Assembly (NCBI GenBank): GCA_028874905.1
Contig: JAPPGZ010000081.1
Coordinates: 1-64,000 of the forward strand
Source of the DNA: Gemmatimonadota bacterium
Lineage (GTDB): Bacteria > Gemmatimonadota > Gemmatimonadetes > Longimicrobiales > Gaopeijiaceae
Length of the DNA: 64,000 bases
Direction: 5' to 3'
Both the position numbers and the translations under genes were made by a program. The stretch's first letter is position 1, and each line of letters starts with the position of its first letter. Positions 36,997 to 42,076 of the stretch are shown here, piece after piece. The notes under the pieces are model-generated. The model saw nothing but the letters and a program-made list of their open reading frames with translations. It did not search any database and was not told the DNA's origin.

Positions 36997-37413
36997 ATGC
37001 CATACCCCGAGATGATGGTCGCCCCGATGCGGCACGAACTGGTTCAGATCGGCTTCCAGGAACTCCGCAGCGCGGAGCAGGTCAACCAGGCGATGGACGC
37101 CATGGAAGGAACCGTGCTCGTGGCGGTCAATTCCGTGTGCGGCTGCGCCGCCGGAATCTTCCGTCCGGCAGTGATGCTGGCCCTCCAGGGCGAAAAGCAG
37201 CCCGACCACAAGGTCACGGTCTTTGCCGGACAGGATCTGGATGCCACCGCGGAGGCCCGCAAGCAGCTGATCGGCTACCCGCCGTCCTCCCCTTCGATCG
37301 CATTGCTGAAGGACGGCGATGTCGTGTTCATGCTCGAGCGCTTCCAGATCGAGGGACGGTCAGCGCCCGCGATCGCCGACGACCTGCAGGCCGCCTTCGA
37401 GGCGCACTGCTAG
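36997..37413 (+). CDS. BrxA/BrxB family bacilliredoxin
   Basis: This 138-aa protein of the YphP/YqiW type has the family's CGC active site (SVCGCAAGIFRP, near 47-58), the opening MPYPEMMVAPMRHELV, and the PPSSPSIALLKDGDVVFMLERFQI region. In Bacillus these proteins remove bacillithiol from S-thiolated proteins. Whether this organism makes bacillithiol cannot be seen here, so a more general thiol-disulfide role is possible. It is divergent from the molybdenum hydroxylase operon. Confidence 0.92.
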   Translation: MPYPEMMVAPMRHELVQIGFQELRSAEQVNQAMDAMEGTVLVAVNSVCGCAAGIFRPAVMLALQGEKQPDHKVTVFAGQDLDATAEARKQLIGYPPSSPSIALLKDGDVVFMLERFQIEGRSAPAIADDLQAAFEAHC

Positions 37414-37489: not shown

Positions 37490-37894
37490 CTAGTCCCCTT
37501 CGCTGCGGCTCGCGAGCCACCCGTCCGCGGAGTACCGGCCGCCGCCGTGCGTGAAGAAGAAGAGCCAGGTGAAGCAGTAGAAGGCGGCAAGTTCGCCACC
37601 GTTCAGGATCGGCCAGAATCCCTGCGGTACGTGCACCATGAAGTACGCGACCGCCATCTGACCGGAGCAGATGAAGGCCACCGGCCTGGTGAACAGCCCG
37701 AGCATCAGCAGCAGGCCGCCGAAGAACTCGATGACCCCGGCGGCGCCCATGAGGCTCATCAGGCTCTCCACGGGTTCCCTGTCCAGCACCCCGAACAGCT
37801 TCTGGGCTCCGTGCTGAGCGTAGAGGAAGCCGGCTACCACGCGCAGCGCGTTGTGAGCGAACTCCTTGAGTCCCGCATGCTCCGTCTTGAACAT
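37490..37894 (-). CDS. DoxX family membrane protein
   Basis: This 134-aa protein has four hydrophobic helices and DoxX signatures: LRVVAGFLYAQHGAQKLFG near the N-terminus, AAGVIEFFGGLLLMLGLFTR in the middle, and the NGGELAAFYCFTWLF segment. DoxX/YphA-like proteins are small inner-membrane proteins tied to redox or thiol stress in some bacteria. The ATG is preceded by a purine-rich site. It stands alone between two operons. Confidence 0.88.
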   Translation of the reverse strand: MFKTEHAGLKEFAHNALRVVAGFLYAQHGAQKLFGVLDREPVESLMSLMGAAGVIEFFGGLLLMLGLFTRPVAFICSGQMAVAYFMVHVPQGFWPILNGGELAAFYCFTWLFFFTHGGGRYSADGWLASRSEGD

Positions 37895-38792: not shown

Positions 38793-39661
38793 TCCGCCCC
38801 CACGTCCACTACTGTTCCCCCGCATCCCTTGCAGAACTGCGCGTCGTAATCGTGTCCGCCGCTGTGGCAGTCCGAACACACCCGGTCCCTCACGCTCGGC
38901 GACCCTTCCATCTTCCTGGCCATATGCGCTGCCTGTGCCATTTCCACACTTACGATCCCCGTCGGCACGGCGATCAGCCCATACCCCATCAGCATGATGA
39001 TGGCCGCCAGGAATTTGCCCACGGACGTCGCCGGCGTAATGTCGCCGAAGCCCACGGTTGTGAGCGTGACCACCGCCCAATAGACCGACTGGGGGATCGA
39101 CGTGAACCCGGCGGTCGACCCCTCGATCAGGTACATGAACGAGCCCAGAATCACAACCAGGGTGACCACCGAGATCAGGAAGACGATGATCCGGTAGCGG
39201 CTTGCCGCCAGCGCCCGTCCCAGGGTCCTGGCTTCGCCCATGTAGCGCACCAGCTTGAGCACCCGGAACACCCGCAGTACCCGCAGCACCCGGATGATGA
39301 GCAGGAAGCCCCCGTCCAGCAGGAGCAGGCTGAGGTAGGTCGGGATGATCGCCAGCAGATCGATGATACCGAAGAAGCTCAGCGCGTACCGCCGCTTCGA
39401 CCGCACCGCGGCCAGTCTCGCCGCGTATTCGATCGTGAAGAGGATCGTGAAGATCCACTCCAGGACGCGCAGCAGGAAACCATGCTCCTCCACGACCGTT
39501 TCCACCGAATCCAGCATGACCACGACGACACTGGACAGGATCGTGAGGATCAGCACGACGTCGAACGCCGTCGCCGCCCCGTTCTGGTCCGATTCGAAGA
39601 GGACGTCGTAGAGCCGTCCCCGCCACGGCGGACCGTTTTCGGGGCGGTTCGTCGGGCTCAT
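38789..39661 (-). CDS. Voltage-gated potassium channel with C-terminal zinc-ribbon-like tail
   Basis: This protein of about 290 aa has six transmembrane segments. S4 carries regularly spaced arginines ([18 protein letters not shown]), and the pore loop holds the K+ filter [12 protein letters not shown]. The C-terminus carries CSDCHSGG ... FCKGCGG, two C-x2-C pairs that could bind zinc. The start at 39661 overlaps the msrA stop by ATGA, and its own stop overlaps the DUF1707 gene by ATGA, so the three genes are translationally coupled. No large regulatory domain such as RCK or cNMP is present. Confidence 0.9.
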
Positions 39662-40338
39662 CCGCGGTCGGGATCCGGCTCGGGGACGCCGCTCGGACAG
39701 GAGAGGCCGGTGCCTCCGAGGCCGCAATATCCGCCCGGGTTCTTCGCCAGATACTGCTGGTGGTACTCTTCGGCGTAGTAGAACTCGGGCGCTTCCGCGA
39801 TCTCGGTGGTAATCGCACCGAATCCCGCGCCCGAAAGCTCGGCCTGGAAGACATCGCGGGTTGCCTCGGCCTGGTGGCGCTGGTGATCGCCCACCACGTA
39901 CACCGCCGAGCGGTATTGCGTACCCAGGTCCGCCCCCTGCCGCATGCCCTGGGTCGGGTCATGCCCTTCCCAGAAGGCCGCCAGGAGCGTACGGTAGTCG
40001 ATCACATCCGGATCGAACACGACGAGCACCGCCTCCGCGTGCCCGGTTCCCCCCGTACACACCTCTTCGTAGGTCGGGTTCGGCGTCAGTCCGCCCTGAT
40101 AGCCGACGGCGGTCGAATACACGCCGCGCAGCTCCCAGAACTGCCGCTCGGCTCCCCAGAAGCAGCCCATTGCGAAGTGCGCCTGCTGGAAGCCGGGTGG
40201 GAACGGCGGCTTGATTCGGTTGCCGCTCACATGGTGCACTTCGGGTACGGGCAACGGTTCGGCGCGACCCGCAAGTGCGTCGCCCGGAGCTGGCATTCGA
40301 GCTTTCCGAGGATCGATAAACATTTGACGGAAATCCAT
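39658..40338 (-). CDS. msrA: Peptide-methionine (S)-S-oxide reductase MsrA
   Basis: This protein of about 226 aa reduces methionine-S-sulfoxide in proteins. The catalytic site is [13 protein letters not shown], followed by the family segments [36 protein letters not shown], and a C-terminal resolving-Cys tail [12 protein letters not shown], as in the three-Cys E. coli type. The start at 40338 (MDFRQMF) gives a length like E. coli MsrA; 40323 is an alternative. It is only about 21 bases from the divergent ammonia-lyase start, so promoters must overlap coding sequence. Confidence 0.95.
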
Positions 40339-40359
40339 TGCCCAAACAAGGTAAAGGTT

Positions 40360-41538
40360 GTGAACTGGACACTCAATCCCGACGCGGCGGCGCCCACGCC
40401 ATACCCGGCCGCGCTGAAAAGGATCATCGGCGGCAACGCCCATCGCGAGGCACTCGCCGAGATCGCGGCGTGGCCTGGTTACGCCCCGACGCCTCTGCGT
40501 ACCGCGGCAAAGCTGGCGTCAAGCCTGGGGATCGAGTCCGTGTGGGTGAAGGATGAGAGCGGCCGATTCGGACTGGGCAGCTTCAAGGCGCTGGGCGGGG
40601 CGTATGGAATACGCCGGGTGATGAAGGGTGGGCGAGACCGCGCCGCGTCCTCCGCCGGAAAGCGTGGCGAGGGCCACCCGGCAACCCCGACCGTCACCTG
40701 CGCTTCCGACGGGAATCACGGGCGGTCCGTCGCGTGGGGTGCCCACATGTTCGGATGCGACGCCGTCGTCTACCTGCCCGCGCATGTGACCGAGATTCGT
40801 GCCGACGCGATCCGGTCGTACGGGGCGCGGGTCGTCCGCGTGGACGGCGAGTACGACGACGCGGTCGCCCGGGCGGCGCGCGACGCCACGCGGAACGGGT
40901 GGACCGTGATCTCCGACACCTCATATCCGGGGTACATGGAAATCCCGCGTCATGTCATGGTGGGATACACGATCATGATCAGCGAGGTGCTGGATGTACT
41001 TCAGCCCACCCTGAATGTGGTTCAGCCCACCCCAGATATGTCATTGCCCACCCACGTGTTCATCCAGGGCGGGGTGGGCGGGCTGGCGGCCGCCGTGATC
41101 GGGCGCCTGTGGGAGCGCCTGGGCGAGCATCGCCCCGTGGCGGTGATCGTCGAGCCGGCCGCAGCCAACGGCCTCCTTCAGAGTGCGCTCGCGGGGAAGC
41201 CGAGCGCGAGCCGCGGCGACCTGCATACGATCATGGCGGGGCTGAGCTGCCGCGAGATCTCGCCGCTCGCGTGGGAGATCGTCGGCAAGGGGGCCCACGC
41301 GTTCATGACCGCGCCGGAAGACGGGATCGCACCGCTCATGCGCGCCGCCGCACAGGGCGACCTGGGGGAGCCGTTCGAGGGCGGGGAGTCGGGTGTGGCA
41401 GGGCTGCTGGGCCTGATCGAGGTCGCGCGGGACGAAGAGCGGCGCCGGGCGATCAGGCTGGACGAGCGCTCGCGTGTTCTCGTGTTCAATACCGAAGGCG
41501 CGACCGACCCGGAACTGTACGCCCGGATTGTGGATTGA
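40360..41538 (+). CDS. Diaminopropionate ammonia-lyase-like PLP enzyme
   Basis: This protein of about 392 aa is of PLP fold type II. The Schiff-base lysine is in [15 protein letters not shown]; other motifs are [48 protein letters not shown] and a C-terminal [12 protein letters not shown]. These match diaminopropionate ammonia-lyase, which converts 2,3-diaminopropionate (and some serine) to pyruvate and ammonia. The GTG start at 40360 is preferred. A short repetitive insert (three near-repeats ending in PT, DNA 40991-41053) precedes the THVFIQGG strand. The OsmC-like gene follows on the same strand after 70 bases. Confidence 0.85.
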
Positions 41539-41608: not shown

Positions 41609-42076
41609 ATGAAACAACAACCCTTCTATACCGCACGTGCCAGCGTCGCCAAGGTGGACGGAATCCACCGCCGCGCGACCCTGGAAGACGGTACCGAGGT
41701 CGACTTCGGCGTCCACGGGCCCATCAAGGCCCACTACCGCCTCGACGCCGAACCCGACCGGCCCCTGCCCGTCGACTATCTCGTCGCGGCGGCCGCCGGC
41801 TGACTGCTCGGGACGCTCAACGGCGCACTGGAGGTGCGCGGGATCCCGATGGCCAACGATGCGATCAGCGTTCGCGCCGAAGGCGTCAACGAAGTGGTGG
41901 ACCGGATGGTGCTGCTCACGAAGATCCACGCGCACTACACGATCCGGCTGCCCGCAGGCGCCGCGCGCGACAAGGTGGACCGCGCGCTCGCCACGCACGT
42001 TGCGAAGTGCCCGACGGCTCGCAGCCTCGAGGGAGCGGTCGAAGTCACCTGGTCGGCGGATGTGACGGAGGGCTAG
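41609..42076 (+). CDS. OsmC family protein with in-frame TGA at the catalytic Cys position, candidate selenoprotein
   Basis: Read through one TGA (41801-41803), this is a full-length OsmC-like protein of 155 residues. The first part ends PVDYLVAAAAG; the second continues in the same frame LLGTLNGALEVRGIPMAN and ends with KCPTARSLEGAVEVTW. In OsmC/Ohr peroxidases the peroxidatic Cys lies just where the TGA is (G-C-L motif), at residue 65; the resolving Cys (KCPTA) is kept. TGA is a normal stop elsewhere in this window. A SECIS-like hairpin follows the TGA. The natural reading is selenocysteine at the peroxidatic site of a thiol peroxidase; a nonsense mutation or sequencing error is the alternative. 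Confidence 0.8.
41809..41848 (+). promoter_or_regulatory. Candidate bacterial SECIS element within the OsmC-like coding region
   Basis: CGGGA (41809-41813) pairs with TCCCG (41844-41848) as an outer stem. Inside it, GCGCAC (41823-41828) pairs with GTGCGC (41834-41839), closing a 5-base loop TGGAG (41829-41833). The apical loop starts 25 bases after the TGA, inside the usual bacterial SECIS range, and has G at its second and third positions, as SelB recognition needs. Stem pairing was checked by eye only. Confidence 0.6.

What the first reader, a model, noticed from the sequence alone, without database searches (positions are those of the whole stretch)
41609..42076. OsmC-family gene with TGA at the peroxidatic cysteine codon: likely selenoprotein
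Reading through TGA at 41801-41803 in one frame gives a complete OsmC-like protein, with the stop exactly where the family has its peroxidatic Cys (AAAG-x-LLGTL), while the resolving Cys (KCPTA) is kept. TGA is the ordinary stop throughout this window (ATGA overlaps), so code reassignment does not explain it. Selenocysteine at a thiol-peroxidase active site is chemically sensible. As I recall, OsmC-like families figure among selenoproteins known from marine metagenomes; the occurrence here should be checked for novelty.
Basis: partly seen in the sequence, partly recalled or inferred. Interest (0 to 1): 0.9.

Follow-up and report, generated by a model that had tools for sequence, protein, structure and literature searches.

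The report
Selenocysteine OsmC protein, Cys-free lineage
A bacterial gene that looks broken by a stop signal is most likely read through to insert the rare amino acid selenocysteine into the active site of a redox protein, and close relatives in three bacterial phyla carry the same signal rather than cysteine.

Summary
Observation and main interpretation hold. TGA 41801-41803 interrupts an OsmC-fold gene at the family's catalytic Cys. In 98 related genomes 87 matches over 38 bits carry this TGA; the 17 site-covering matches without it are weak (22-29 bits). It is also in 80 of 80 loci from named records, and 32 of 32 and 7 of 7 site-covering matches in two other phyla. Purifying selection is alike before and after it. 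A hairpin 19 nt downstream meets published bacterial SECIS limits and pairs in 498 of 498 cells, with two-sided changes at 3 of 6 pairs. The genome has selA, selB, selD and tRNA-Sec(UCA). OsmC-like selenoproteins are known since 2005 as UxxT; this lineage is UxxxT, fails NCBIfam OsmC_like_Se (29.4 against 95 bits), lacks the Ohr catalytic Glu position, comes in two sub-families (both in 31 of 54 carriers), and showed no Cys form at the cut-offs used. Sec insertion is strongly supported, though not observed as protein; peroxidase-like activity is inferred. New variant of a known kind.

The parts
41609..42076 (+). osmC-like selenoprotein gene (sub-family A), 155 codons plus TAG stop; best fitting start ATG 41609
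   Evidence: AlphaFold2 model mean pLDDT 96.4, OsmC/Ohr fold
41801..41803 (+). TGA codon 65, read as selenocysteine at the position of the peroxidatic Cys of OsmC/Ohr
41823..41839 (+). bacterial SECIS-type hairpin GCGCAC-UGGAG-GUGCGC; stem starts 19 nt and apical loop 25 nt after the TGA
   Evidence: published limits in PMC13188914 (passage)
42008..42010 (+). codon 134 (TGC), the resolving-Cys position (KCPTA); the only Cys codon of the ORF
   Evidence: invariant in alignments A1 and A4

Best explanation
The gene encodes a selenoprotein of the OsmC fold. When the ribosome reaches UGA at codon 65, a hairpin 19 nt downstream in the mRNA acts as the bacterial SECIS. SelB with GTP and Sec-tRNA(UCA), made by SelA with selenophosphate from SelD, inserts selenocysteine, and translation runs on to the TAG at 42074 (Sec insertion: strongly supported by sequence, not observed as a protein; the roles of the Sel proteins are established knowledge). 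The product folds like OsmC/Ohr: Sec65 sits in the central helix where those enzymes carry the peroxidatic Cys, and Cys134 is at the resolving position (alignment and model). The likely chemistry (inferred) is that the selenolate attacks a hydroperoxide or other oxidised substrate, the selenenic acid forms a Se-S bond with Cys134, and a thiol reductant resets it. The protein belongs to a Sec-containing lineage with two sub-families, A (this gene) and B, both present in this genome. The confidence given is for Sec insertion and the fold; peroxidase-type activity I put at about 0.6.
For: Conservation of the TGA: 87 matches over 38 bits in 98 relatives, all with TGA; 80 of 80; 32 of 32 and 7 of 7 site-covering rows in two other phyla; identity to the window protein down to 48% within A (L163). 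dN/dS 0.134 before, 0.176 after the TGA over 231 pairs. Codons +7 to +12 hardly vary even at silent sites, exactly where the hairpin lies. 83 distinct rows: 100% of cells paired, 35 cells changed on both sides and covariation score 0.253, each reached by 0 of 500 shuffles; slid controls at most 2 such cells. The three two-sided exchanges each join an amino-acid change on one arm to a silent change on the other. Hairpin MFE -12.7 kcal/mol, z -3.4. Full Sec machinery. selB over cut-off in 51 of 54 genomes with TGA-OsmC, in 14 of 44 without (counted by hand; Fisher p 2.6e-11). Fold.
Against: No protein or read-through measurement. The Fisher test and the shuffles ignore relatedness; the number of pairs with two-sided change was reached by 2 of 500 shuffles and the number of further pair types by 220 of 500. 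3 of 54 carriers (G024, G029, G032; 81-88% complete) and 3 of 8 carriers outside Gemmatimonadota (G409, G413, G414; completeness not told) lack a selB over cut-off. In this genome the selB match covers only model positions 2-343 of 581. The Ohr catalytic Glu is 10 residues before its Cys (PMC5962072); here that position is Val or Leu in 62 of 62 rows, with Asp one residue later in all 62, so the peroxidase step is not secured. The 45-nt stretch around the hairpin folds only slightly better than shuffles (z -1.2), and the hairpin after the TGA of selD also only slightly (z -1.4).
Confidence: 0.93

Rival explanations
1. Premature stop: a pseudogene or two short proteins, one ending at the TGA and one restarting at GTG 41834.
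For: Mechanical ORF calling gives a 109-aa ORF ending at 41803 and an 80-aa ORF from GTG 41834.
Against: Same TGA, never TAA or TAG, at the site in the relatives read and in the site-covering rows; similar constraint on both sides; the OsmC match and the high-confidence fold need both halves. A restart after the TGA would lack most of the central helix 54-76.
Confidence: 0.01
2. UGA is read here by another route, as Cys by a tRNA-Cys(UCA) or as Trp by genome-wide reassignment.
For: Cys at this site would make an ordinary OsmC; UGA-reading tRNA-Cys variants have been reported in some bacteria (recalled, not looked up).
Against: TGA is an ordinary stop in 8 of 10 neighbouring ORFs. The genome has selA, selB, a selD that itself carries a TGA, and a tRNA-Sec with a UCA anticodon scoring 69.3 bits against 47. 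The covarying hairpin is what SelB-dependent insertion needs. A full survey for odd tRNA-Cys genes was not made.
Confidence: 0.03
3. Sec is inserted as described, but the protein is not a hydroperoxide reductase; it is a selenol redox protein of the uncharacterised YhfA/COG1765-like side of the OsmC superfamily (for example a persulfide, disulfide or electrophile-handling enzyme). This shares the Sec step with the best explanation and contests only its chemistry.
For: The acidic residue stands at -9, as in four ordinary OsmC-type proteins of related genomes (L089, L090, L091, L096), not at -10 as in Ohr; 57 of 62 rows have Val and 5 Leu at -10. YhfA's activity is described as unknown (PMC5962072, passage). 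The best NCBIfam partial match of the A members tested is OsmC_like_Se.
Against: Foldseek ranks E. coli OsmC and an Ohr first, though at 19-20% identity; both redox positions are kept; the only PDB sequence match below E 0.01 is T. thermophilus OsmC; one B member hit only the OsmC peroxiredoxin model TIGR03562, weakly.
Confidence: 0.4

Closest known systems
OsmC-like selenoprotein of the Sargasso Sea and GOS metagenomes (COG1765/PF02566; PMC1088965, PMC2398784; listed in the 2026 review PMC13188914; passages seen)
   Same: OsmC superfamily, Sec at a catalytic position, predicted bacterial SECIS downstream.
   Different: Published motif UxxT from 3 and 5 sequences; here UxxGT, that is UxxxT (G at +3 and T at +4 in 62 of 62 rows). 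The 2005 sequences themselves were not at hand to compare.
NCBIfam NF041052 OsmC_like_Se, OsmC-related (seleno)protein
   Same: OsmC superfamily; weak partial match.
   Different: This protein scores 29.4 bits against a cut-off of 95; 0 of 98 related genomes have a match over the cut-off.
OsmC and Ohr peroxidases (E. coli OsmC 1qwi/1nye, T. thermophilus OsmC 1ukk, C. violaceum OhrB 6eb4)
   Same: Fold (TM 0.68-0.74 on the query for these entries), Cp and Cr positions.
   Different: Sec in place of Cp; no acidic residue at -10; 18-23% identity.
SelD selenoprotein of the same genome (G000 C44)
   Same: In-frame TGA followed by a hairpin (-15.5 kcal/mol, z -1.4).
   Different: Unrelated protein; other hairpin sequence.

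Membership tests
Bacterial selenoprotein (SelB/SECIS route) | In-frame TGA with homology on both sides | tested here: met
Bacterial selenoprotein (SelB/SECIS route) | TGA aligned with Cys of homologues | tested here: met
   1ukk has Cys; ordinary OsmC proteins of relatives L193 and L194 have Cys
[quoted passage not shown]
   5-nt loop UGGAG (or 3-nt GGA if U-G pairs), 6-7 bp, spacing 25-26 nt, -12.7 kcal/mol; covariation
Bacterial selenoprotein (SelB/SECIS route) | selA, selB, selC, selD in the genome | tested here: met
Bacterial selenoprotein (SelB/SECIS route) | Sec found in the protein | not testable with these tools
   needs 75Se labelling or mass spectrometry
OsmC superfamily (PF02566) | Score over the Pfam cut-off; OsmC fold | tested here: met
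   52.1 against 27.5 bits
NF041052 OsmC_like_Se | Score over the curated cut-off of 95 bits | tested here: not met
   29.4 bits; of six other A and B members four score 23-29 bits and two have no NF041052 hit
Published OsmC-like UxxT selenoprotein | UxxT motif | tested here: not met
   UxxGT in 62 of 62 rows
Ohr peroxidase | Peroxidatic and resolving Cys positions | tested here: met
   U65 and C134 aligned with the two Cys of OsmC 1ukk, with Sec for the first
Ohr peroxidase | Glu ten residues before the peroxidatic Cys | tested here: not met
   Val 57, Leu 5 of 62 rows; Asp at -9 in 62 of 62
Ohr/OsmC peroxidase | Catalytic Arg near the active site | tested here: inconclusive
   R21 invariant in A1 and A4 but its place in the site was not measured
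Ohr/OsmC peroxidase | Hydroperoxide reductase activity | not testable with these tools
   needs enzyme assay

The most novel reading that the evidence does not exclude
A deep OsmC lineage that is obligately Sec-dependent. It spans at least Gemmatimonadota, Acidobacteriota and Eiseniibacteriota (by record titles), has two sub-families often in one genome, and has no Cys form at all, which suggests chemistry that Cys cannot do and a catalytic site different from Ohr/OsmC (Asp at -9 in place of Glu at -10). The conserved SECIS hairpin has also shaped the protein: Ala/Val and Gly/Ala exchanges in the helix after Sec track silent changes on the other arm of the hairpin.
Probability: 0.4. Interest if true: 0.65.

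Novelty: new variant of a known kind. Interest (0 to 1): 0.5.

Why it matters
The 2026 review says nearly all selenoproteins have Cys homologues, usually far more abundant (PMC13188914, passages). This lineage showed no Cys form in the searches made over three phyla, so it could test what Sec gives that Cys cannot. Annotation with table 11 would be expected to cut these genes at the TGA, and the NCBIfam OsmC_like_Se model does not reach the lineage. The hairpin also gives a clear case of an RNA signal inside a coding region that fixes codons and covaries with amino acids.

Tried and rejected
Pseudogene, split gene and code reassignment were considered and rejected (see rivals). Phage origin: a scan of viral contigs found 33 pattern matches and no relative. 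Operon logic: none of the 11 neighbours tried was found near more than 24 of 129 loci (49 + 80), but many loci hold only 1-1.5 kb of flank and one query (the PALP-family enzyme) was cut out of frame, so no functional partner could be inferred. Rfam gave no hit over gathering score in the window. ARAGORN did not report the tRNA-Sec at the contig start; Rfam did. Two apparent oddities were explained: rows with an extra TAG or TGA run past the gene's own stop, and 'Gammaproteobacteria' carriers (L136, L164, L171) have the same contigs and coordinates as G159, G271 and G405 of the window's own family. A first residue count failed through a wrong pattern and was redone. One L205 translation gave no family; its coordinates were guessed and may be out of frame, so it counts for nothing.

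Full report
What is there. Reading 41609-42073 with TGA as Sec gives 155 residues with one TGA at codon 65 and a TAG stop. The product matches Pfam OsmC (52.1 bits, cut-off 27.5) across the stop, and HMMER aligns codon 65 and C134 with the two active-site Cys of T. thermophilus OsmC 1ukk. An AlphaFold2 model from 42 window and named-record sequences has mean pLDDT 96.4, with codon 65 in the long helix 54-76 and C134 between two helices. Foldseek puts E. coli OsmC first and an OhrB second. The model was made with Cys at 65.

Source. The window is contig C107 of a 4.05 Mb genome, 111 contigs, 94.8% complete. Same-family genome G047 has a contig of the same length, matched at the same place, as a record titled Longimicrobiales bacterium (L036 and L176), so this is an uncultured Gemmatimonadota member; the window's own name was not given.

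Sec machinery. selB 313 bits over a 242 cut-off, matched over model positions 2-343 of 581 in a 682-aa frame; selA 421 bits; selD 378 bits with its own in-frame TGA; tRNA-Sec 69.3 bits over 47 with a CUUCAAA anticodon loop, that is UCA. The tRNA gene begins at the start of contig C84, whose first 52 bases recur, on the other strand, at the start of contig C14.

Conservation. In 98 related genomes there were 105 matches in 67 genomes. 87 matches carry the TGA: 50 in sub-family A (53-99% identity, 49 genomes) and 37 in sub-family B (30-44%, 36 genomes); both are present in 31 of the 54 carrier genomes, A alone in 18, B alone in 5. 18 matches carry none: one C-terminal fragment that does not reach the site, and 17 weak matches of 22-29 bits that were not read one by one; two such weak matches that were read (L193, L194) are ordinary Cys-containing OsmC. 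A scan of named genome records found 158 relatives, of which the best 80 were returned; 80 of 80 have TGA; the other 78 were not seen. In 395 genomes of the phylum, 117 have a match at E 1e-8 and every listed row has TGA, but the list was cut. Four weak genomes were followed up: G316 and G179 (in pieces) have TGA, G065 and G304 have only ordinary OsmC. In 396 genomes of a second phylum (that of G412, a record titled Acidobacteria), 32 genomes match at E 1e-12, with 32 of 33 rows TGA and the other not covering the site. In 47 genomes of a third (that of G419, a record titled Eisenbacteria), 7 genomes match at E 1e-10, 7 of 7 rows TGA. In some searches at most nine candidates per genome were scored. 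No Cys form was seen. A Cys form much more diverged than B would not be told from ordinary OsmC by these searches.

Selection. NG86 over 231 pairs of 22 same-genus sequences: median dN/dS 0.134 before the TGA, 0.176 after, 0.168 after with the first 14 codons left out.

Hairpin. At 41823-41839 lies GCGCAC-UGGAG-GUGCGC, 19 nt after the TGA. All 148 stretches examined (129 A, 19 B) form all six pairs, G-U counted as a pair; the loop is UGGAG in 126, UGGAA in 20, UGGAU in 2. On 106 of them, 83 distinct, 498 of 498 cells pair. Cells paired, cells changed on both sides (35) and the covariation score are each reached by 0 of 500 shuffles; pairs with two-sided change (3) by 2 of 500; further pair types (6) by 220 of 500, so that last measure says nothing. 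Sliding the partner by 1 to 3 columns leaves at most 2 two-sided cells. Pair 26-36 goes C-G to U-A, pair 27-35 A-U to G-C, pair 23-39 G-C to C-G once (L163). By the codon frame these swaps join an amino-acid change on one arm (Ala to Val, Val to Ala, Gly to Ala) to a silent change on the other, which codon usage alone would not be expected to produce. Loop, stem, spacing and energy meet the bacterial SECIS limits quoted in PMC13188914 (passages). The hairpin alone folds better than shuffles (z -3.4); the 45-nt stretch around it hardly does (z -1.2).

Co-occurrence. 51 of 54 genomes with a TGA-OsmC have selB over cut-off, against 14 of 44 without (counted by hand; Fisher 2.6e-11; relatedness not corrected). 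The three exceptions are 81-88% complete bins. Outside Gemmatimonadota 5 of 8 carriers have selB over cut-off; four non-carriers of the window's family in the same call had no match.

Relation to known families. OsmC-like selenoproteins are in print (PMC1088965: passages and tables; PMC2398784: table passage; PMC13188914: passages), with motif UxxT. Here it is UxxGT in 62 of 62 rows. The NF041052 cut-off is not reached. Searches of the library for OsmC with selenoprotein, selenocysteine or selenoproteome, for Gemmatimonad with selenocysteine, for Palauibacter and for novel selenoproteins listed no paper that by title or shown abstract describes this lineage; only the papers named here were opened. 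A tree of 45 rows puts the 35 Sec rows together (91/89, below the starred level; long branches meet), with A one group (92/41) and B mixed with rows from the second phylum. One origin of Sec in this lineage is favoured but not shown.

Mechanism. Sec insertion rests on independent lines and I hold it at about 0.95. The chemistry is inferred from the fold and the two redox positions. The Glu of the Ohr triad (Glu51 and Cys61; PMC5962072 passages) has no acidic counterpart ten residues before Sec, while Asp at -9 is present in 62 of 62 rows, the register of some COG1765-like proteins (label recalled; sequences). I therefore give peroxidase-type activity about 0.6 and another selenol redox role about 0.4.

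Noticed in passing
L064 (G000 C102 end) and L065 (G000 C31 start): The sub-family B paralogue of this genome is split between two contigs that share 55 identical bases spanning the TGA and hairpin.
   Followed up: partly
L008 1-91 and L013 1-55: The tRNA-Sec gene also lies on a contig junction (52 shared bases).
   Followed up: partly
G006 C17 7397-7618; G015 C38 28754-29041: Sub-family B matches in these two genomes cover only part of the protein (query 7-79 and 54-150); whether by contig ends or frame breaks was not checked.
   Followed up: no
L204, L205: Sec-OsmC sequences of the second phylum that branch off next to the B group in the tree (86/80), possibly a third sub-family.
   Followed up: partly
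window 36997-37413, 37490-37894, 39658-40443: Redox-type genes nearby: a PF06491 disulphide isomerase-type protein with a CGC motif, DoxX, and MsrA.
   Followed up: partly
L163 6144-6188: The most diverged hairpin: first pair flipped from G-C to C-G together with a Gly to Ala change in the protein.
   Followed up: yes
L136, L164, L171: Records titled Gammaproteobacteria whose genomes coincide in contigs with Gemmatimonadota-family genomes G159, G271, G405: probably mislabelled bins.
   Followed up: partly
L063 2762-2857 (G046 C40 39987-40082): A second C-terminal fragment of sub-family A (69% identity, 32 residues) about 2.3 kb downstream of the intact gene, perhaps a decayed duplicate.
   Followed up: no
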